Positions 17,359-42,100 of a stretch of 64,000 bases of DNA are shown here, in pieces; positions within the stretch are counted from its first letter, which is position 1, and each line of letters starts with the position of its first letter. A model generated the notes under the pieces. That model searched no databases. It was not told the origin of the DNA and was given only the letters and a program-made list of their open reading frames with translations. Origin of the DNA: Marchantia polymorpha subsp. ruderalis (lineage: Eukaryota > Streptophyta > Marchantiopsida > Marchantiales > Marchantiaceae); assembly GCA_037833965.1 (NCBI GenBank), contig AP031351.1, positions 14,582,501 through 14,646,500 of the forward strand, given 5' to 3'. The translations under genes were made by a program, and so were the position numbers.

Positions 17359-20300
17359 CTACGACATCATATTATCTGCCTCGAATCCAGAACTTCCTCC
17401 AAAGACGGAGGTCGACGTAAATTCCCGGCATACAGCGGCAGCATTCGCAGAAGCTGAATCTTGAAACGAATTCCGTCCATCCTTTGCTTCACCGGTGTTC
17501 ATTTCAATATCCATCATGACGCCAGGACTGCCTTGTTGCACGAAGGTGTTATGGTCGCCGGAGGCAGAAGAAACATTCCGGTGTTGACGGGGGTCTTTTT
17601 CCACTTCGGGAGCTGCAAGAGTAAACTTATCCCCCAGTTCGTTATCTTCAAATCTACCTCCGATCGTTGGCCTCACAATTTTCCTCCTCCCACCTTTCCC
17701 AGGCTCACCAGCGTCCAGGTTCCCACCTTCGTCTCCCGAGCTGGCGGACACGACTTGAGACTTTTTGCGACTCCAACCCTGAGGTTCCTCCGTGGCTTGT
17801 TCCCTATTCTCAGGGACATCGAAGAAGGAGTCGTCAGCGAGGACGTCGTCTTCAGCAAGTCTCGCATCGTGGGTCCTCAGGGCACCATCTCCAGCCGCAT
17901 CAACTTTTCTGGTCCAGACCAAGTTCTGGTGTGGATAGATCTTTTTCTTCTTGTTTGCAACAATATTGTCTCTGGATTCAGCAAAAGAATTCCCTGCAGG
18001 GCCAAGTCGGCTGAAGACGCGGCCTTTACCATACGGCAAGGGGGTTTTCTTTACAAAAGGCTTTGCCGGTGGAAGATTGATCCTCGACCAGACGCTTGCC
18101 TTCCTCTTCCTACTGTCAGATCTGAGGCCGCCTTCCTCAGAACTATCGAAGTTGGTTTCTTTCCACGATTGTCGGGCATCGTCGTCCTCAGCCGCAACGA
18201 AGCGCTGTCTAGGTTTGGCCGTATTGAGAAGGGTTACCACACGCTCGGCCCGACCCTTACCTGGCGGCGCCTGCAGATTGGCTTTAATTTTGAAGACGGG
18301 GACGTTCGCATTCCTGGCAGAGAAGTCTCTGCCGATGCTGTGCACAACTTCCCTGGAAGGCACTGATTCCCTCCTTGATGCTAATAACGTTGCAAGCCCT
18401 GGTTTCTCTCTACCTAGAGCTTTCGCACCTGCAAGGGGCCTCGCATGAGACTTCCCTGTCTTCCCATTGAGGAAAGTGCTCGAAACCGGGACCGGACTTG
18501 GCCTGCCTTTCTCGGCCACGCGGAGGAGAGAAACATCTTCGGAAGCTGGGCTCAGCTCTTCGAAGTCGTCACGGGAACTGGAGGCAACTGCATAATCTGA
18601 CCCCCGAGAAGCTACAGACCGACCCTTTGGAGGAGAAGACACAAAGCTTTTGTCATCTTCCTCCTCCCAAACTCTCCGTCGGACTATCTTAGAATCCACA
18701 TCGTGCACGTGAGACGATGAGGGTTCTCCGTGTCCCATGTCGAGGGGAATGTTCAAATCAATGTCGTTCCGCACATGTCTCGTGCTGGCGACGTAAGGCA
18801 CTTCCTCTTTGTATCCACCTTTGCCGACCCTATCAAACACTTCACTTCCTGTAACTTCAGCCCTCGACTGGTGAACCTCCTTCCAGCTAGGACTCGAAGA
18901 TGTATTCCCCCTTTTCAGATCGTCCAATGCGTTCGACGAAATTGCGTGCCTCTTTCTGTACAGAACTTCCCTTGTGTCATCATCTCTCCAATCTCCACCA
19001 CCGACCTTCAAGTCTGCATGCCTGCCAGTGGTTACATTGTGGCCTGCAGTAGTTCTTGAACCAGATACACTTCTGACTGACTGTTGCTTGCCACGAGACA
19101 AAACGGCCATCGCGGATGAATCGAGCGGCAATATGACTTCGTCCCCATAAGCTTCCGCATCACTACTAAAGCCTTTTGATGAATGAACCTGTATCGGGAC
19201 CTTTGAAGAGAAACGTCCTCCATCTTGTCCATGGTAAGCGTGGCTATTAAGAGTTCTTGTGTCCAGACCAGGAGCCCTCCTCCGATCTTCCTTACCATAA
19301 ATGTCATCTGAAAGGCCATGAAAATCTTGCCGGCCTTGAACAAGCCCGGAATGCAAGGAACTTCTAGATGAAGTCGAATGGATGCTGCGGCCGGCATCCA
19401 CTACTGGACGGAAGCACTGCATCAACTTCGCCACCTGCATAAAATCCAATTCATAACTCAAGCAAAGCCCCAGCCTAGATGCCGACGTACACACTATGGC
19501 ATGAACGAGCACAGATACGAAGTCCAGTCGAGTTTGTAGAGGAAGACACAAAATTTTGCAAGTCAAAATGTCCAACCGTCATCAAACTCAATGCTGGAAT
19601 AGGTCAGATCAAAATTCACCTGCTCCTTGCTTAATCCCGCCGTGAACTTCGTATTCGTGTAGTAATTGTCACGTATAAATTCCTTGAAGTCTCTCTCAAG
19701 AAGAGGGAGACAATCCTTGATTGCCCGGACTCGTACCTGAGCAGGCACAGAAAGATTGAGGCAAGTAGGGCAAGAAGGACAACCAGGGGTCAAAGAAAAA
19801 AGGGATTGAGTGGAAAAACTGTAAGTTTATAGTTTACTTCACCCACCAAAATGGTGTTAAGTTTGAGTCAATTCTCTGAAGAAGAATTTGAGCAAGCTGT
19901 GGTTATGGACCCAGAGGTCACATAGTTTGGATTTCCACGGTACAATGTCGGCACAACACTGTGAAGTGCAAAGTACCTCAGAGCACATGATCGGATTCGA
20001 CGATTATGGCAATAACAACTGTTTCGAGAAAAGAATACTTGAAAGAAGAGATCAAAGAACGCTGTAGAAATATGGGACCCTCTAATAATGTAATAGATGT
20101 GGCAACTGCACAACCAAACTACCCAAAGCGAGGACATATATTCTAGAAAAAACCATCACTCAAAAGAGGGCAAGAAGATCGGCAGCGAATGTACATAACG
20201 ATCGGATTCGTTTAAAACTCCAGGCGGAAATATATACGAATCTCATGTGTTAAAGTACCCATCAGATGAGATTTGTTAAAGTACCCATCATTTAGGGCGT

Positions 20301-21483
20301 CCTTCTCACAGGGACGGCCTCCAGCTACAGCATGCCCGAACACAACCATTTACTCCATGACGACGAATGCGAGAACCACTCACGTCGAGTGTAAACTGCA
20401 ACCCTGTCACGAAGGCCTAAGCATATCCACATCTGGATGTGCTGTTATCAAAGAGACTTAAAGCATCACACTGTGCGTGCGCCATAGGAGGTCTCTCATA
20501 GTAGATCTTAGAATTTTCTCCGTGATCGTGACGTTACTTTTGGGACAACCCAAACAGAACATATCCCCAATCCTAATGTATAGACCGAAGGAACCAATCC
20601 TCTAAGTTCGCCACAGCTGAACAGATTCAACCGATGGAATAGTCGTACGCCACATGAAGTAAAGGTCATGAAGTGTGAAAAAGCGAGAGTGTGGACCAAC
20701 CTGTGATGATGAAACCTCAGAATCAAGATCGAAGATAGCATATCCCATCGACTGAAACACACCATATAGCTCTCTTGAATTACCATCGAAAAGGAACACT
20801 TTGGTTCCAGGACCAACTTGTTCCGCGAGACGGCGGTCATCAAATGTCAACGCAAATGTTCCCTTCAAAGTCCAATCGAGAATCATGCGCTTCGGGCTCT
20901 CAAAAATAAATCCGGGAAGAAAATCATGACTGTTGCCGGCCGAAGTGACAAAATCAGATCCAGAGCTCCGAAGGCTTCCAACTCCATCGTAGTTGTTAAA
21001 ACTACCATACTTTCCTCCGTGTCTCACCCATTTTGGCTCATCAGCGTAGTCTGATCTGTAAGTTCTTTCCACTCTGCCCCCGACTGCACCTTCACGAAGT
21101 CGGTTTGCATCTCCACCACCCCCTCCTCGTATAGCATCATCGGACCTCAACAATTTCATGGCGCCAAGTTCGTCCTTGAAACCCGACCTTCGTTCTGTAT
21201 TTCCATATCCACTGCCTTCGGCTTGATCGAAACCCCTGGACTGCTTTGGTAAGAACCCGGGTATCCTACCATCTCTTCCCAGCCTATCTTCGTCGACAGC
21301 CGCTTTACCACGGCTAGCTCTCTCGTCGGCAGAGCCACCAAATACGTTCAGCTGTCGTCTGGGCATCGAGTTCACAGAGTGAGGTACTGTTATCCCTCCA
21401 TCCCTTGGATCAAGAAGTCCCCTCGAAGTTCGGCCGACACCGTACATGTTCTCCACTTGAGTAAAATCTCTACTACTTCTCAT
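17359..21483 (-). CDS. DCD (Development and Cell Death) domain protein, three coding exons
   Basis: Plant-specific DCD proteins are linked to stress, hormone and cell-death responses; the molecular function here is unknown. Coding exons on the minus strand: 21483-20701, 19736-19620, 19434-17359, all joined in phase 0 (CAG|GTTGGT...CTCAG|GTACGA; CAG|GTGAAT...TGCAG|GTGGCG). Predicted length 991 residues. The DCD domain spans about residues 190-312: GFIFESPKRM, then VGPGTKVFLFD and ELYGVFQS, then SQVRVRAIKDCLPL across the first junction, and DNYYTNTKFTAGLSKEQVAK across the second. It is preceded by about 190 Gly/Arg/Ser-rich residues and followed by about 680 low-complexity, charged, probably disordered residues containing DIDLNIPL near residue 525, which resembles a DLN-type EAR repression motif. 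The ATG at 21483 has an in-frame stop 12 bases upstream. The DCD call is strong; the role of the tails is open. Confidence 0.9.
19737..20700 (-). other. Long (964-base) intron inside the DCD domain
   Basis: The longest intron confirmed in the window; most others are roughly 80-550 bases. Donor GTTGGT, acceptor CTGCTCAG. It splits the DCD domain between Gln and Val of the SQ|VRVRA segment. Nothing else was recognised inside it. Confidence 0.75.
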
Positions 21484-25900: not shown

Positions 25901-26357
25901 GCACCTGGCGGTGTAGAAACACGTGAAGCTTTTCAGACTTGATCTATTTCCATGAGCTCGAGAGTCCAATGAACGCATTCAACTGAACAAAAAAGGGTCT
26001 AACGATGAGGCCCACCGACACCTGACATTATGCGGACTCCTTTCTCACATGCTCACCTTGTATATACAAAAAGTTGCTCAGTCAATCCACGTCAAATCAA
26101 CAATCCCTTCAGATCGAGATAGATTACTGATGATCAGCTGATTGTAATTATGGCAAAGAATACAGGGTCCTGTCTCAGCTTGTTAACTCAACCCAGGTTG
26201 TCACCAAGTCGCACAAATCAGATACGTATGGATCACAACATAGACAATCATGTTGTATGGATTATGTGAGTGATCAGGGCCTCTTCAACTATTACTGCAA
26301 AATAAGTGTGGTAACTCCTAAGACTCATTATGTGGAGCCGATTCAAACTTGCCATGC
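22931..26357. other. Intergenic region between the DCD and CBS/PB1 genes
   Basis: Only short frames without family similarity. The part next to 26357 should hold the 3' UTR of the minus-strand CBS/PB1 gene, and possibly a further exon if the consensus donor at the end of its distal last exon is used. No RNA gene or mobile element was recognised. Confidence 0.45.
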
Positions 26358-26555
26358 TTACTTACCCCATTTGGGCGGAGGCATGTCTGCTTTTGACTTC
26401 CACATGTATACAATAAGACCCATAACAGGGAATGCGACTGCTGCCACTGCAGCTGCATGTTTGAGATTGAAGTTCTCTTCATGGGAGTAAAGTATCACGC
26501 CTCTTCGGGATTTTCTCGGAGCAAAGTGCGGTAAATCCAGGTAAAGTCTCAAACC
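26358..26555 (-). other. Distal alternative last exon of the CBS/PB1 gene
   Basis: Acceptor TTTCTGTTGCAG then GGT TTG AGA CTT, also phase 0. Encodes GLRLYLDLPH..., a different basic linker (PRKSRRG), a membrane span around AAAVAAVAFPVMGLIVYMW, and a 13-residue tail KSKADMPPPKWGK before TAA. Joined to the same upstream exon it gives a 566-residue protein. It starts 13 bases after the stop codon of the proximal exon. Its end overlaps a consensus donor (TGGG|GTAAGTAAG), so it might alternatively splice further. Judged a genuine coding exon because the first eight residues match the other exon in frame and a membrane segment follows. Confidence 0.75.
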
Positions 26556-26568
26556 CTGCAACAGAAAC

Positions 26569-26793
26569 CTAGTTAGACCTTTTAAGGTACACTGCAAGAG
26601 ATATACCGACGACGACGACTGTAGCTGCCACAACGGCTGTCTGGACATGGACCGGTGTCATCCAGCTGCTCTGGCTCTCAGTGTGTACTGGGTCATTGCG
26701 GTGTTCAACTCTGGGAGGTGCCTTAGGAACTTTTTGTGGCAAAGAACGAGCAACAGAATGCACGTGCGTGTAGTCCAAAAAGAGTCTCAACCC
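26569..26793 (-). other. Proximal alternative last exon of the CBS/PB1 gene
   Basis: Acceptor CCCGTGCAG then GGG TTG AGA CTC, phase 0 with the exon ending GGTTGGAAG at 27000. Encodes GLRLFLDYTH..., the last PB1 strand, a 40-residue linker, TAVVAATVVVVGISLAVYL as membrane anchor, and a four-residue tail KRSN before TAG. Confidence 0.85.
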
Positions 26794-29700
26794 CTGCACG
26801 GGCGATAATATTAGAATGGTCATACAAACAGAACCTTAGACCCACAAAAACAGCCAACTTTTCCATCACTAAAAGGTGCACGCACTGGTCCCTAAAAAAG
26901 ATAAAATAAATAAATTTAACACCCGATCGAACTGCAGCTTCTTCCACATAAATGTAGTCAACGTGATCGGTTTGAACTCCAGAAAATAAGGCAACTTACC
27001 TTCCAACCAGATATCCTTGCAAAATTCACTGCGGCAACCAAATCACTGTCACTTCCCAACAGTACCCGATCCCCCTCATCGTCTTCATACTGCGAAAGCC
27101 CACTCGAAGAATTCAAAATTGGTCTCAGATAGCTAAGCTCGCACTTAATCAAAGAGGCACGAAAGGAATCTCAATCTGGTACGTGATAAAAGTTGACAAG
27201 AGAGCAGTTGTCATATAGCAGCATAGTGCTTTATATTCAAGCAAACGGAACCTCGAAGAGCATAGCACAGAATATATACAAAATTTTCCTGTGAAGGCAA
27301 CTGATAATGAGCAGCATACCATGATGTGAGGAAGTTGATTTAAATCAACATCATCACCTACGCGCTGTACTATGGCAGAGATAAGCTCTGTCAGACTCTC
27401 GGTTCCTGCTTAGGAGGTCACAATGCACAAACATTTTCAACAATCAATGCTTTAAAAACTCAATTTAGCCAGATTTGAAGAAAACCGTGTTTGATTCATG
27501 TTCCTTTCGCTGCCTCTTCACCCTCTTGACAAAATCGAAAAAGCGTTAGATGCAGACTCATACCACAGTTAAAACGATGAACACGGCCCTTTCGGTCTTC
27601 CAGCTTGAATGAGAATGTGTTTCCCATCCCGTTTCCCATCCCGAGAGATGGGTAATTCTGACGTCCTGCTTCTGACCCGTACATGTCTGAAGCCGCATGC
27701 CTCGCAGAAATATCGCTAGCAGTCACACTGCGGCCAACACATCTCAAATATTAACAGCACTGCACATTTATCACGGTACTTTATAAGCTTAAGGTGGATG
27801 AGTCCGAAAGTGATGGTCCATACGGTAAATGCCGTCGCGATAGACCTCTTCAGTCAAAGTGCTAAGACTCTGTAAACGTAAACTTTTCTTACAAGTGCCT
27901 TACATAGAACAATATCGATACTAAATGATCTCTCTAAATGGTACATGGGATCTGTGGTATCAAAGTTCAAAGTTAAGCGCTCTCTTTTTTGGCCCCACTC
28001 TTCATCGTACTTCCATGTCTCTAACTAAAAGCAACGCTCAGCCACGGCGATCGTTGGGTTGTCAGGCTATGAAGAGAGATATTAAACGGTACACTTTGAA
28101 TAGATTGATATTAGAAGACATAAACTTACCTGTGAGTGTCGTCATCATCTTCTGGAGGCTCTAAAGCTAGAGCCGAATCCCAAAATTTCTGTAACATTGT
28201 ACCCCCCACATCTGCGGCACCACCATTTGTGTTGCTCCCCACCTTGAAAAGAAACAGAACACTGATCAGCTTTTAAGCATCCATCTTCAATGTAAATACT
28301 TGACGTTAGATGCTGTAGTCAACACCAATTTCTTCAACAACATTGCAAGGAGCACACATTCCTTTCCCAAACGCAGGCCCCAGTCAGACGACCTGAGCAA
28401 CCAATTCCAAAATTTTCTCTAATCTTTTACTCACGTACACACGACGAAGCAAAGGATGCCACATAGAAACGCGACTTTGATGCCAGTTGTCTTCTTGTTT
28501 CAACCATTCCATACTCGTTCTTGATCCTCATTCATGCTTTATCGAATCAATAGAATCAACTGGCAAATGCGTTAATGAAGAAAACATACCGTTGCAACAG
28601 CGCCATGTGTGAGCTGCAGGACATCTACGCATGCCACCACTTGACCATCTGCTTGCAAAATAGGCTGAGTAAGAGAAAGCACAAGCAGATGTTTGCCAGA
28701 AATCACAAATAAAGTGCCAAGATTTGAAGCCAGTTTGAATGTACAAACCTCTATCGACCACCGGAAGATGCAAAAATTTGCCATCATGCATCGTATGCAA
28801 TGCATCAACGATGGTCGTGTCTAACGAAGCACATTCCGGATTGGGAGTCATGACCTGCAAAAATGACACCTCTGAGAAAAATTGTGACTCTAAACACTTC
28901 ACAGCTTGCAATAAACAACGGAGGACTCTATCAATTAAATGACCACACCAGCACTAAAGACATATCCGGGAAGATTAACTCAAAGATAAGAGGAACCTTT
29001 CCAACGTACCTTCTCGACCGGTGTAGTATCAGGTGGAAGACCCACGGCAACTACTCGCATTAACACATCTTTTGATCTGCAAAACCATAACAGTGGATGT
29101 CATTTATAAGCCCAATTTCGAGAATACAATCAAAATGAAGAAATGAAGATACAATCACAAAATTCCTTTCGAGTATACAAAACGCCTTAGAGAGAAATCA
29201 TTCGCACTCTGTTGCAAGAGGTAAGATTCACACGTGAGAATGCCCTGAGGCTTATTGTTGGTAGTGATGACAACCGAGTTGACACGCAAGTCACGCATCT
29301 TTTTTGTTGCAGTATAAACTGTGTCGGAAAGCCCAACAGTGGCAACTCTGTCAAGGACAGAAGCACCACAGTGAATGAGAACGACGAACACAAACAGGTA
29401 GCAAAAAGGAAACGACTAACCTAACTACAAACACGCCACACAAATCTCACATCAACTTTATACTCCCATTCCAACCTCAACGAAGAAGTCCTGAGCTGAT
29501 GACAATTTACTTGAAATGCAACAACACAGAATGACAAAAAAGTGAGTAAGATGACACCCACTTGACTCCTTCACTGAGCAGAGATCCTAATGTAGGGCGA
29601 AACATTCGCTCTCGCAACGTTTCGATAAAATTGGACGGTGCCGCTGTGATACGAAATTCATGTCAATAATTTTCCAAGCTTTGATAGGAACCCTCGCTCT

Positions 29701-31733
29701 TCCATTGGCTAGTGCAAGTAAAGAAGGAATTCTTGAAAGAATAAAATATTATAATTTTTTGAGAGTGAATGTCCACTTCATACTATCAAAACTCTGAACA
29801 CCAAAATCCATAACGCACCGTTGGCATTGTTGCCCCATTGGCGTTCAACACCCTCTACAGCAGCTGCAATCGCATTTCCTTTTTCTGCTGCCCTCTCCAT
29901 CCTTGCAATCGCATCATACAGGCACTTGGTGATATCCAGAAGAGCAACTACTTCACCATTCTCAACGACTGGAAGATGCCGAAATTTCCCTGCACAAGTG
30001 TAAAACCAGGCTAAGAGCTAGGCTACTGATTGATTACAGTCCAGAAAGAAAATCTCGCTCCTAGCAACAGAAAGCTGGAATTTTCCATGTCGATGTAAGC
30101 TCTCCAAAATTAGAAAGCTCGCAAACTGGCCAAGTGGAACTAACAGAAAGCAGGGCGATACAAAGAAGTCCGGCACTTCAGTCTAAAATTCAGTCTAATA
30201 GTATGAGTTCCATGATTTGAATGTTCGAAAATGGAGGCAGTACCTTGGACCATTTTCTGTAATGCGTCTACCGCAAGAGTATCCCCCATCACAAATATTG
30301 GATTCCTTGTCATTACTTTGGATACTGAGGTCTCTTCAGGCTTAAAGCCCTCAGCGATAACCCTTGTTGCCACATCCTTCAGAAACAACAATCGACTGAC
30401 TCAGAATAACCGAAGGCTAGAAACTTGCAACATTTATATTTGCGTATCTGGAGGGCAGAGGACAAATAATAAATCAAGTGCATCCCCGGCTTTCTTCACG
30501 TCCAGTTTTCATACCTTGTCAGTGATAATTCCACAGAGCAAAGCACTCGCATCAGTGAGCAGGGCTGCATCTACTCTTCTGGTGGCCATCCGGCGACAGG
30601 CATCTGCGACTGTTGTGCCATCTGGTATAGTAAGCGCCTTCGAAAGCCGCAACCTTTTCACAGTCCGCTCCCCAGGCGAGGTTCTGGTGGCGAACACATA
30701 ACACAAGCTTTTGAGTCGTTTGCAGGCCTCAACTTACTACAAATGATGATTATTCTAATGCATCAGTCAAAATACAATAGACAGTACGATTACATATTGC
30801 CCTCCTTCATAGGCATGACTGCTTTTAGCAGTTATTTCGTCATCCAGCAGACCACCATCGGTGGTTCGCTGCACATACTGAGGTCAAGAACTTGGCCACA
30901 CAAGTACCAGCCTTCCACCTTTTTGATCTAAATTAGAGGAACACACACGGGATCTGAACTTCTCAAAATTGGCTTGGTACAGGTCAGAATAGAGGGGGCG
31001 TGCTAAGCAGCACAATTCTGATGAACATGCACAGACGGTGATATATCCAGTTTCAATTAAGAATCGGGAGTGCACTTTAAGAACCACAAGTGCGGCATCT
31101 AATGGCTACTGAAGAACTCTTGGTGTTTGGGAGGAAAGAGCTCATTTGGTAAAGAGCCAAGAATCGAAAGATTTGGGAAAATCTTCCATACACAAAGGGA
31201 TTTCAGATAAGGCTAGTTGAACACGAAATCCCTTCACGTGAAGACTTTCATTGCGCCTGACGATTGCAGCTAGATATTAGTTTCTATGATCAAATATCAT
31301 ATCTCAATTAGGGTCCAGCAGACTCAATTGGTTGATGGCCAAACAGTTTACTTCCGCTAGTGAAAGCAATGGTCTTAGTTCAGTTCCTACACGAATATAT
31401 CTCGTGAAGGTCATTCGAAAAGTCTGTAGATTCAAACAGTATTTTGAAAAGAAGTAAACGAAAGTAAGACGTACAAAGCACACTTTGAAGAATTTCATCA
31501 AACCTCGGCAATAACGACCACAACTGGTCCAAGAACTAACTGATTCATAAAATCGTTCAAAAGAGTAGAAAACAAGAATCATACAAGGGCCTTCCTGCTC
31601 CGCCTGGTTTCCTAGCCCCGCCATTTTCAGACGGAGGTTTCTTTCTTGCTACGCCAGGACGCTTCGGAGTGGTAGCTTGCCCGCCTTGCCTCTTGCTCCC
31701 AGGTCCCTGGGCAGCAGATCCTGTGCTGCTCAT
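26569..31733 (-). CDS. CBSCBSPB: Four-CBS-domain, PB1-domain, tail-anchored protein (14 coding exons)
   Basis: Matches the plant CBSCBSPB family: two Bateman modules (CBS pairs, which in other proteins bind adenylates), a PB1 interaction domain and a C-terminal membrane segment. Minus-strand exons: 31733-31585, 30683-30515, 30376-30244, 29989-29819, 29643-29562, 29347-29234, 29076-29010, 28854-28749, 28648-28590, 28242-28130, 27727-27564, 27405-27320, 27089-27000, then 26793-26569. Phases agree at every junction; the shared part is exactly 501 codons and the product 575 residues. Residues about 50-207 hold CBS1-2 (ERTVKRLRLSKAL, DKDVATRVIAEG, GKFRHLPVVENG), 232-350 CBS3-4 (MTPNPE, HDGKFLHLPVVDRDG), 418-509 PB1 with its basic strand (FSFKLEDRKG) and acidic OPCA motif (YEDDEGDRVLLGSDSDL), and 552-571 a hydrophobic anchor. 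The start is the ATG at 31733 (MSSTGSAAQGP); an upstream TTG in frame is ignored. An alternative last exon is annotated separately. Confidence 0.93.
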
Positions 31734-39128: not shown

Positions 39129-42100
39129 ATGAGAAGCTTGCGGATGACTGAGGGATTCAAGAACAGTCACGTGCACGCGGTGAGTCCCATCGAGACCAGC
39201 ATCTCGGTCGGAGCTGGAAATGGAAAGCATTGCCGAACGACGTACAATGAGTCGGCCCCTTCCACTAGGTGCGTGAAGTCCAAGTCGAAGCCTGACAAAT
39301 TTCTCGTCCCCCAGCTCCCGTCCCAACGCTCTGTAGTATTTCTGATCTGCGCTTTGCGTTTTTGCCTTTGCGGAGTGTGCATAGTGGCCGGTGTCGTTGT
39401 CGAGTCGTGTTTCTGAGCTGAGCTGGCGTGATCGTTTTGGCCCGCAGTTGCACCGTCGCCCAACTCGCAGATCCGTGCTTGCAGCCCTACTTCAGGCCGG
39501 TAGACTATGTGGAATCGTTGGCGGAGATTCATGAGGAGTTGGAGCTGGCTGCGGACGGGGAGAAGGCCCGCTTGTACATGGAGCAGTCCTTCGTTTTTCG
39601 GGGCCTGGGCGAGAGCAAAATGCTGCGTCGCAGCTTGCGTTCTGCTCGGCAGCACGCGGTGACGGTTCACGATAAGCTCGTACTTGCGTCTTGGCTAAAA
39701 TACGAGAAACGCGCAGAGGAGCTCCATGAGGGATCTCCCACCTTGTGTACAGGTCGCAGATTGGAGTGTCCCCGATCGGCTCTGGTTCCCGGCTTCGCTC
39801 CCAAGCTGGCCCTGGAGCCGTGCGCCTGTGAAGGTCCCGATGCAGATGGTGCCCTCCTGGTGGACGAGTGCTCGACGTCTGGCTTCATAAGGAATGATGT
39901 AGTCTTTCTTATCGATAACGATAGAGTATTCTGTAATAGGCAGAGAATAGCTTGTCTTTCTGGTCCATTCCATGCGATGCTGAACGGTTGTTTCGCAGAG
40001 TCTCGTGCAGATGAGATAGAGTTTTCCGACAACGGGATCTCTCCCGTAGGAATGAGGGCGGTGGACGAGTTTAGTAAACTGGGCAGACTAGGCTTCTTGG
40101 CTCCTGACCTGGTGCTGGAACTGTTAGCCTTTGCTAATAGATTTTGTTGTGAACATTTAAAAGACGCTTGTGACAAACGGCTTGCGGCCTTGGTGCACTC
40201 CACTCAAGATGCGGTGACATTTCTTGACTATGCATTAGAAGAAAGTGCCCAAGTCCTCGTAGCCTCTTGCCTCCAAGTTTTTCTTCGGGAGCTACCGGGA
40301 TCCCTACATAATCCTCAGATTGGCACTTTGCTGTATCGGCCAGAAGGAAGGAAGAGATTCCAGATGGTGGGACACTCGTCCTTCGCGCTGTACTCTCTTT
40401 TGAGTCAAGTGGCAATGGAAGAGGATATAAAGTCGGATCTCTCCGTGGTGCTTCTTGAACGTGCAGTAGAATGCGCGGTCTCTTCTCGACAAAAAGCGTT
40501 GGCTCTTCATCAGCTCGGCTGCGTGACTCTTAGTAGAAAGCAGTACCTCGAGGCACAGGAGTTTTTCACAGGAGCTGCTAATGAAGGGCATGTTTATTCA
40601 CGGGCCGGAATCGCGAGGGCCAAATATAAGCGGGGCCTTAGGCTTGCGGCTTTCGCAGACGCTTCATCCATTCTGTCAACTGAGAAACCCGCAGGATGGA
40701 TGTACTTAGAGAGGTCTTTGTATTGCGATGGAAAGGACAAGCTAGCGGATTTGAATAAGGCAACTGAGCTGGATCCCACTCTACTGTACCCGTATAAATA
40801 CAGATCCGCCTCCCTAATGGATGAGCAAAAGGTTGAGCCAGCCATCGTAGAAATCAACCGGGTTTTGGGGTTTAAGGTTACGCCGGACTGTCTGGAGTTG
40901 CGAGCTTACTTCTGTCTTGCTCTCCAAGATTACCAAGGAGCGACTAGGGATGTTCGAGCGTTGCTGACACTCGATCCCTCGTTCATGATGTATTCTGGCC
41001 GAGTTACAGCTGTACAACTACTCAGATTGCTAAGTCTGCACGTGGACGAGTGGACTAAAGCAGATTGCTGGATGCAACTATACGATCATTGGTCATCCGT
41101 GGACGACATTGGATCACTGGCAGTTGTCCACCAAATGCTGGAGTCTGATCCCGGAAAGGGCTTACTATTCTTCCGACAGTCACTGCTTCTTTTGAGGTTA
41201 GTCAACCTCCTAACAAATAACATTCCCAAATTGTGCAATTCTCGCCAACAGTAGCCAGTGTGCAGCCCTGGGTTTTGCTGATTTCTGTTTGATATAAGGA
41301 ATAGAGGGCTAAACTTGACTTGTGAGTGGTTTGAGTTGTGTACATGAGGTTTTGAGGGCAACCGCCTTCGTATTTTTATTTGTGTTTCAAGAATCTAGAT
41401 CATATCATCTATTAGTAGACGGTGGTCGCTAGTGGTTGCCGGAAGTCTCAGATGCCTGGTGGCAAAGAGTGATCTGTTTGGTTCCTATGCGGGCTCCCGA
41501 CGAGAATTTTGTATGCTGCTGCCCTGGCTGAGTTGTTTTGTCTGGAGAGCTGGTCACCGGACCTAAACTTTGATATATATGAGTATAAGCTGAGGAAGCG
41601 AGATGTGTTTTCCAACATGTGTATGCAGATTAAATTGCCCGAAAGCTGCCATGCGCAGTTTAAGATTGGCGCGTGAACATGCAAGTAGTGAGCATGAAAA
41701 GTTGGTGTACGAAGGCTGGATTCTGTATGACACAGGGCATAGAGAGGAAGCTTTGGAGAAGGCCGAAGAATCAATCGCCATTCAACGGTCATTTGAAGCT
41801 TTTTTCCTGAAAGCTTATGCTTTAGCAGACACGAGCTTGGATCCGGGATCATCAGCTAAAGTAGTTGAGCTCCTAGAGGAGGCACTAAAATGCCCATCCG
41901 ACGGACTGCGCAAAGGACAGGTGTGATTTTGTCTCAAGCACCAAGGTGTTTACTCTTTTTTAAGTGCCCTGTGCTTGTGAAAGCTATTTCTCAGCATGAT
42001 TCTGAACAGACTTACGTTGTGGTTGCAGGCCTTAAACAACCTTGGCAGTGTATATGTAGACTGCCGTGAGTTGAAGCTCGCTGCTGACCGATATGTGAGT

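What the first reader, a model, noticed from the sequence alone, without database searches (positions are those of the whole stretch)
26358..26999. Tandem alternative last exons give the CBS/PB1 protein two different membrane anchors
Seen: two exons with good acceptors, both phase 0 after the same upstream exon, start with nearly the same peptide (GLRLFLD / GLRLYLD, the last PB1 strand) and then diverge into different linkers, different hydrophobic spans and different tails (4 versus 13 residues). Known: family members I recall have one such C-terminus. Inference: one exon was duplicated and the copies now act as mutually exclusive last exons, producing 575- and 566-residue forms that keep PB1 but may sit in different membranes. 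This would be a splice switch for the location of an adenylate-sensing-type protein.
Basis: partly seen in the sequence, partly recalled or inferred. Interest (0 to 1): 0.8.

Follow-up and report, generated by a model that had tools for sequence, protein, structure and literature searches.

The report
Liverwort energy-sensor gene: two tail exons
A liverwort gene of a family that includes a plant energy sensor carries two different versions of its last coding segment side by side, so the cell could choose by splicing between two membrane anchors; the second version looks old and kept by selection, but no transcript has yet been seen to use it.

Summary
A Marchantia CBSCBSPB gene (minus strand, 13 shared exons, 31733-27000) is followed by two phase-0 coding segments: A (26793-26569, 575-aa protein) and B (26555-26358, 566-aa protein). 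Both complete PB1 and add a hydrophobic span, with tails of 4 and 13 residues. A profile of 115 non-liverwort last segments finds only A and B above threshold among 2029 window ORFs. B has the best-scoring of 73 nearby acceptors and is too diverged from A to have kept frame and profile match by drift in my simulations. Tree tests reject a duplication within Marchantiopsida, with a long-branch caveat. Correction: A has no donor and B's acceptor lies 13 bases after A's stop, so this is one composite last exon with two acceptors. A meets the published plant mitochondrial outer-membrane tail motif, as do 112 of 118 relatives; B does not. An Arabidopsis relative is called a homologue of the soybean energy sensor NAS1, so splicing could relocate such a sensor. 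No RNA, localisation or cross-species DNA evidence was available. New variant of a known kind.

The parts
27000..31733 (-). Thirteen shared coding exons of a CBSCBSPB protein (31733-31585, 30683-30515, 30376-30244, 29989-29819, 29643-29562, 29347-29234, 29076-29010, 28854-28749, 28648-28590, 28242-28130, 27727-27564, 27405-27320, 27089-27000); CBS domains and most of PB1
   Evidence: Model; Pfam CBS and PB1; M. paleacea orthologue P0001 of 575 aa
26794..26999 (-). Last intron of the A form, gtaagt...gtgcag, with a CTAAT branch-like motif 18 nt before the acceptor
26569..26793 (-). Segment A: GLRLFLD (last PB1 strand), long linker, hydrophobic span, tail KRSN, stop TAG; family-typical tail shared with the M. 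paleacea and Riccia records and, as RRSN, with Calypogeia
26556..26577 (-). Branch-like motif and acceptor of segment B (CTAAC ... tttctgttgcag); its upstream end overlaps the last codons and stop of A (TCT AAC TAG, 26577-26569)
   Evidence: score 11.9, highest of 73 AGs at about 26980-25900; A's acceptor 9.9. Only 1 of the gene's 12 other acceptors has a CTRAY motif in the stretch searched, so the motif is not diagnostic
26358..26555 (-). Segment B: GLRLYLD, 65 codons, hydrophobic span AAAVAAVAFPVMGLIVYMW, tail KSKADMPPPKWGK, stop TAA
26295..26365 (-). Possible 71-nt extra intron (GGG|gtaagt ... ttttgcag|TAA) that would swap the B ending for KWVIVEEALITHIIHTT; weak, optional
   Evidence: (donor 4.8; this gene's donors score 1.2-10.5 left out one at a time; acceptor not in the listed top 12 of 73)

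Best explanation
This is the Marchantia CBSCBSPB (NAS1-like) gene. Its last coding segment was duplicated in tandem long ago. The two copies now sit in one composite terminal exon, each with its own acceptor. Use of the proximal acceptor gives form A: translation stops at TAG and segment B becomes 3' untranslated sequence. Use of the distal acceptor removes A within the intron and gives form B. Both forms keep all CBS domains and a complete PB1 domain and end in a hydrophobic span. They differ in linker, span and tail. Inferred step: form A inserts in the outer mitochondrial membrane through its short dibasic tail, as the family tail generally predicts. Form B lacks that signal and goes, at least partly, to another membrane (ER, plastid envelope) or by a different insertion route, so splicing sets where the sensor can hold its partners.
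For: Anatomy and frames. B is a true family last segment: profile E 5.9e-4, second only to A among 2029 ORFs; global alignment of B to Diphasiastrum P0005 lies 10.4 SD above shuffles, to P0026 8.2 SD, to A 4.8 SD. Splice signals: B's acceptor is the best of 73 in the region, and 2 of 372 AGs in the gene score as high or higher, B itself included. Retention under selection: codon-position identities between A and B are 30, 28 and 20 of 55. In neutral drift from A, 393, 5, 0 and 0 of 4000 runs at K 0.3, 0.6, 1.0 and 1.5 kept an open frame and a score as high. Age: B held with the A of Marchantia alone is rejected (AU p 0.008 and 0.006), and with the A of Marchantia and Riccia (p 0.006); with all three liverwort relatives and A it is not rejected (p 0.107 and 0.182). 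Anchor: best 19-residue hydropathy is 2.36 for A and 2.02 for B against a family median of 1.97, n 118. The motif of Marty et al. 2014 (PMC4154396, passages read) is met by A and by 112 of 118 relatives, not by B. Sensor link.
Against: No RNA, cDNA or protein evidence for form B. Two searches of the protein collection for the B tail found nothing, though clusters at 90% identity could hide a form that shares about 90% with form A. The three named liverwort records among the 120 listed (M. paleacea, Riccia, Calypogeia) all carry A. Codon usage of B is close to A's but does not separate B from other stop-free stretches (159 of 315 score as high). The acceptor matrix rests on 12 sites, one of which scores -4.8 when left out, and 11 of those 12 lack the branch-like motif. 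A aligns to the Diphasiastrum tails with higher scores than B does (76 against 62, 54 against 45). B is a long branch, so its dating is soft, and the tool warns that its join with P0026 may be false. The neutral simulation starts from A as a stand-in for the ancestor and has no indels. The mitochondrial motif is context dependent by its authors' own words, and the two PTP1B tail variants were reported to localise identically.
Confidence: 0.62

Rival explanations
1. Segment B is a former last exon that is no longer used. The gene makes form A, and B is transcribed only as 3' untranslated sequence, its frame surviving by chance or because use stopped recently.
For: The three named liverwort records seen carry A; no B-tail protein found; B's codon usage is not diagnostic.
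Against: B's acceptor is the strongest of 73 in the region, the frame is open, PB1 strand and span are intact, and neutral runs at K 1.0 and 1.5 never kept this (0 of 4000 each).
Confidence: 0.22
2. Both forms are made but act as a dosage control rather than a location switch: for instance form B is unstable, or the optional 3' intron (26365-26295), lying more than 50 nt after A's stop, exposes form A mRNA to nonsense-mediated decay.
For: A possible donor and acceptor downstream; the distance from A's stop (26569) to the donor is about 200 nt. The 50-nt rule is recalled.
Against: The downstream donor scores only 4.8 and its acceptor is not in the listed top 12 of 73; both proteins have complete domains and plausible spans.
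Confidence: 0.1
3. Segment B came from another gene copy (exon capture, as reported for KRAS exon 4A) rather than from tandem duplication of A.
For: B is closer to lycophyte tails than to A; KRAS4A precedent (PMC9882654, passages).
Against: No other place in this genome matched the B segment, and none of the other fetched loci gave a close CBSCBSPB match; a lost donor gene cannot be excluded. B is a long branch.
Confidence: 0.15

Closest known systems
Plant CBSCBSPB family (AtCBSCBSPB1-5; GmNAS1/AtNAS1-like energy sensors)
   Same: CBS domains plus PB1, a C-terminal hydrophobic span; segment A has the family's short basic tail
   Different: Of 118 relatives' last segments, 111 have tails of 4 to 8 residues; here a second, 13-residue tail is encoded just downstream. 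Kushwaha 2009 reported no alternative splicing among the nine two-CBS Arabidopsis genes (PMC2694836, passages), though a later paper lists a gene model AT3G52950.2 and some database records are labelled isoform X1 or X2; what those differ in I did not see
KRAS exon 4A/4B
   Same: Alternative last coding segments at a shared upstream junction that change mainly the membrane-targeting C-terminus; old and kept (PMC9882654, passages)
   Different: KRAS uses lipidated tails and two last exons; here the tails are hydrophobic spans and the two acceptors lie in one terminal exon
VAMP-1B and PTP1B tail-anchor splice variants
   Same: Splicing changes the very end of a tail-anchored protein; in VAMP-1B positive charge at the end matters for mitochondrial targeting (PMC4592070, passages)
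   Different: Animal proteins of other families; the two PTP1B variants were reported to localise identically, a warning for the location step
Plant dibasic outer-mitochondrial-membrane tail-anchored proteins (Marty et al. 2014)
   Same: Form A fits the expanded motif (dibasic, tail of 3-8 residues)
   Different: Form B has a 13-residue tail with K-S-K next to the span; it fails the length and position rules

Membership tests
CBSCBSPB family | CBS domains | tested here: met
   Pfam CBS, 4 stretches, E about 9e-33 in both forms
CBSCBSPB family | PB1 domain near the C-terminus, complete in each form | tested here: met
   PF00564 residues 425-508, profile 1-82 of 84, 55.3 bits (A) and 53.4 bits (B)
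CBSCBSPB family | C-terminal hydrophobic span | tested here: met
   Best 19-residue hydropathy A 2.36, B 2.02; family range 1.65-2.6, n 118
NAS1-type AMP/energy sensor | Binds AMP and changes partner or dimer state (recalled) | not testable with these tools
   Homology only: At3g52950 = AtCBSCBSPB3, called NAS1-like, homologue of GmNAS1; Ke et al. 2022 not held
Plant dibasic outer-mitochondrial tail-anchored proteins | Motif of Marty et al. 2014 in a 3-8 residue tail, form A | tested here: met
   KRSN; 112 of 118 relatives also meet it
Plant dibasic outer-mitochondrial tail-anchored proteins | Same motif, form B | tested here: not met
   KSKADMPPPKWGK, 13 residues
Plant dibasic outer-mitochondrial tail-anchored proteins | Located in the outer mitochondrial membrane | not testable with these tools
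   No localisation data
Alternative terminal coding segments by duplication | Two homologous coding segments, same phase, each with an acceptor | tested here: met
Alternative terminal coding segments by duplication | Both joined to the same upstream exon in mRNA | not testable with these tools
   No transcript data

The most novel reading that the evidence does not exclude
An ancient splice switch in liverworts, older than the Marchantia-Calypogeia split and perhaps near the origin of land plants, moves a NAS1-type energy sensor between the mitochondrial surface and another membrane. Lycophytes kept the B-like long tail in separate gene copies (Diphasiastrum P0005, P0026) instead of in one gene.
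Probability: 0.2. Interest if true: 0.75.

Novelty: new variant of a known kind. Interest (0 to 1): 0.52.

Why it matters
If used, one gene in a liverwort would encode an energy-sensor-like protein with the same CBS and PB1 core and two anchors, chosen by a single acceptor choice. For soybean NAS1/NAP1 I recall (Ke et al. 2022, not held) that these proteins act by holding a transcription factor at mitochondria. A form with a different anchor would then change which membrane holds that partner. The test is easy: one RT-PCR, two tail fusions and one acceptor edit in Marchantia.

Tried and rejected
Recent tandem duplication inside Marchantia: rejected by tree tests, subject to long branches.

Codon usage as proof of coding for B: inconclusive.

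Direct DNA repeat between A and B: the repeat finder lists none at its default settings; the copies are too diverged at DNA level for it.

Paralogues with the same pair: the B segment gave one match in the genome, its own place. A local tblastn of form A against the fetched loci L001-L020 gave matches in L009 (this gene) and, at 25% identity, L001 and L002; none in the others, among them L019 and L020 around the CBS places at C2 14.51 and 21.33 Mb. At least two of the 17 CBS places (C9 22.78 Mb, C3 12.53 Mb) were not fetched, and a whole-protein search of the genome did not complete, so a second CBSCBSPB gene is not excluded.

PB1 family search of the genome did not list this gene; I infer that this is because its PB1 is split over exons.

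Literature: searches for Marchantia with alternative last exon (2 papers, listing only) and for tail-anchored CBS proteins in Arabidopsis (2 papers, one opened in passages) showed nothing on this gene. The search for CBSCBSPB gave 12 papers; I opened three of them in passages, and the passages shown mention no tail switch. Table 2 of Marty et al. 2014 is, as far as the passages show, not held with its rows, so I cannot say whether CBSCBSPB proteins are in it.

Full report
What the window holds. The window lies in a 241-Mb, 9-contig genome. The best-scoring relative of the gene is a 575-residue hypothetical protein of Marchantia paleacea, P0001; Riccia sorocarpa P0003 and Calypogeia fissa P0004 are the next plants with the same domains. 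P0001 differs from the window at several residues of the last segment, so the window is from another Marchantia; M. polymorpha is my inference. The gene on the minus strand has 13 shared coding exons from 31733 to 27000. It codes for CBS domains and a PB1 domain.

The observation. After exon 13 (AAG|gtaagt at 27000) two acceptors open phase-0 segments. A, 26793-26569, gives a 575-residue protein. B, 26555-26358, gives a 566-residue protein. They start GLRLFLD and GLRLYLD. Mutte and Weijers report a G-x-L-x-L-x-L motif in the fifth strand of CBS-associated PB1 domains (PMC7051960, passages); I take this to be that strand. Pfam scores PB1 across the same residues 425-508 in both forms, 55.3 and 53.4 bits.

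A correction. Segment A has no donor in this reading, and the B acceptor lies 13 nt after A's stop codon. The event is therefore a choice between two acceptors 238 nt apart in one composite terminal exon. In the A form, B is 3' untranslated sequence; in the B form, A is part of the intron. No second polyadenylation site is needed. The branch-like CTAAC of B overlaps A's last codons (TCT AAC TAG); A has CTAAT at the same distance, 18 nt. Only 1 of the gene's 12 other acceptors has such a motif in the stretch searched, so this is suggestive only.

Is B a real family segment? The protein search with form B listed 120 of 1647 relatives. Of these, 118 gave a last-segment sequence; P0002 and P0022 were dropped because none could be cut. 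A profile from 115 of them, leaving out the three named liverworts, was run over 2029 stop-to-stop pieces of the window. A scored E 4.5e-14 and B E 5.9e-4, both over profile positions 1-57 of 58. The third was E 0.46, below the inclusion threshold. Global alignment scores above shuffles were 10.4 SD for B against Diphasiastrum P0005, 8.2 SD against Diphasiastrum P0026 and 4.8 SD against A. A itself scores higher than B against both Diphasiastrum tails (76 against 62, 54 against 45), so B is not their special match; it is simply nearer to them than to A.

Splice signals. With a matrix from this gene's own 12 acceptors, B scores 11.9 and A 9.9, first and second of 73 AGs between about 26980 and 25900. 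In the whole gene, 2 of 372 AGs reach B's score, B included, and 10 reach A's. The matrix is small, and one acceptor of the model (29643) scores -4.8 when left out.

Selection. Over 55 aligned codons A and B share 16 residues, and codon positions 1, 2 and 3 agree at 30, 28 and 20. Position 3 (36%) is not far above chance, so the copies are far apart. In a neutral simulation from A without indels, 1008, 351, 166 and 77 of 4000 runs at K 0.3, 0.6, 1.0 and 1.5 had no stop. With a profile score of at least 17 bits as well, 393, 5, 0 and 0 of 4000 remained. Codon usage is 0.175 bits per codon for B and 0.213 for A. 40 of 1060 non-coding windows reach B's value, and 159 of 315 stop-free ones do, so codon usage does not decide the matter.

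Age. Trees were built from 34 of the 118 last segments, picked by hand to cover non-flowering plants, plus A and B, and again from 30 without P0011, P0065, P0085 and P0110. Holding B with the A of Marchantia alone is rejected (AU p 0.008, 0.006). Holding it with the A of Marchantia and Riccia is rejected (p 0.006; this group was named after the first tree). Holding it with all liverwort A, Calypogeia included, is not rejected (p 0.107, 0.182). B sits near the Diphasiastrum tails P0005 and P0026 without starred support (held together: p 0.299 in the first tree; one side of a branch, 90/94, in the second), but it is a long branch and the tool warns that its join with P0026 may be false. The duplication thus probably predates the Marchantia-Calypogeia split. 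Segment B should then be findable in those genomes, which I could not read.

Is form B known? Two searches of the 5.8-billion-protein collection for the B tail gave no match (63 candidates, none at E 10 or better; no candidate). The collection shows one representative per 90% cluster, and the two forms share about nine tenths of their length, so a deposited B form could be hidden in the three-member cluster P0001. The B segment gave one match in the genome, its own place.

What the tails may do. Marty et al. 2014 (PMC4154396, passages) define a dibasic motif for plant outer-mitochondrial tail-anchored proteins, with a tail of 3-8 residues. With a simple rule for where the span ends, 112 of 118 relatives meet it. 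The six that do not are P0005, P0020, P0025 (a record named partial), P0026, P0032 and P0111. A (KRSN) meets it; B (KSKADMPPPKWGK, 13) does not. The three relatives with tails of 9 or more (P0005, P0020, P0026) are all named Diphasiastrum. B's span is ordinary for the family in hydropathy (2.02; median 1.97, n 118). That B sits in another membrane is inferred. PTP1B is a warning: its two tail variants were reported to localise identically (PMC4592070, passages).

What the protein may do. At3g52950 is AtCBSCBSPB3 (PMC2694836, passage). A 2024 interactome paper names it NAS1-like, an interactor of SnRK1 and a homologue of GmNAS1, an energy sensor in soybean nodules, citing Ke et al. 2022 (PMC11526089, passages). 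Ke et al. is not held. I recall that GmNAS1 and GmNAP1 respond to AMP and hold an NF-YC subunit at mitochondria; this comes from no call. Against a purely mitochondrial family, a tomato paper lists a CBSPB5-like protein (Arabidopsis At5g50640) in a table of its chloroplast stromal proteome study (PMC10493611, passage). If the liverwort protein works like NAS1, the anchor is part of the mechanism.

A further possibility. Just at B's stop lies GGG|gtaagt (26366), and 71 nt on ttttgcag|TAA (26294). Splicing there would give the ending KWVIVEEALITHIIHTT. The donor scores 4.8, where this gene's donors score 1.2-10.5 left out one at a time, but the acceptor is not among the listed top 12 of 73. I rate it as minor.

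Verdict. The anatomy is real and unlikely to be chance. B is probably a functional old alternative segment. Use in mRNA and a change of membrane are not shown.

Noticed in passing
26295-26365 (minus strand): Possible 71-nt intron whose donor overlaps the end of segment B; splicing would replace the B ending after W by a 15-residue tail, VIVEEALITHIIHTT.
   Followed up: partly
26569-26577 (minus strand): The last codons and stop of segment A (TCT AAC TAG) contain a branch-like CTAAC for segment B, 18 nt before its acceptor; A's own acceptor has CTAAT at the same distance.
   Followed up: partly
39428-41254 (+): Single long open frame of 608 aa with a BTB domain (Pfam PF00651, E 5e-5); it looks to me like an ETO1-type BTB/TPR protein, recalled and not tested.
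   Followed up: partly
20602-21483 (-): Open frame of 293 aa with a Dev_Cell_Death domain (PF10539, E 4.8e-7); the 738-aa frame at 17359-19575 on the same strand has no Pfam match at E 0.001 and may be the same gene.
   Followed up: partly
P0005, P0020, P0026 (Diphasiastrum complanatum proteins): Three lycophyte relatives are the only ones of 118 with tails of 9 to 14 residues, two of them with a D-I/L pair where B has D-M; they may be B-type tails kept in separate genes.
   Followed up: partly
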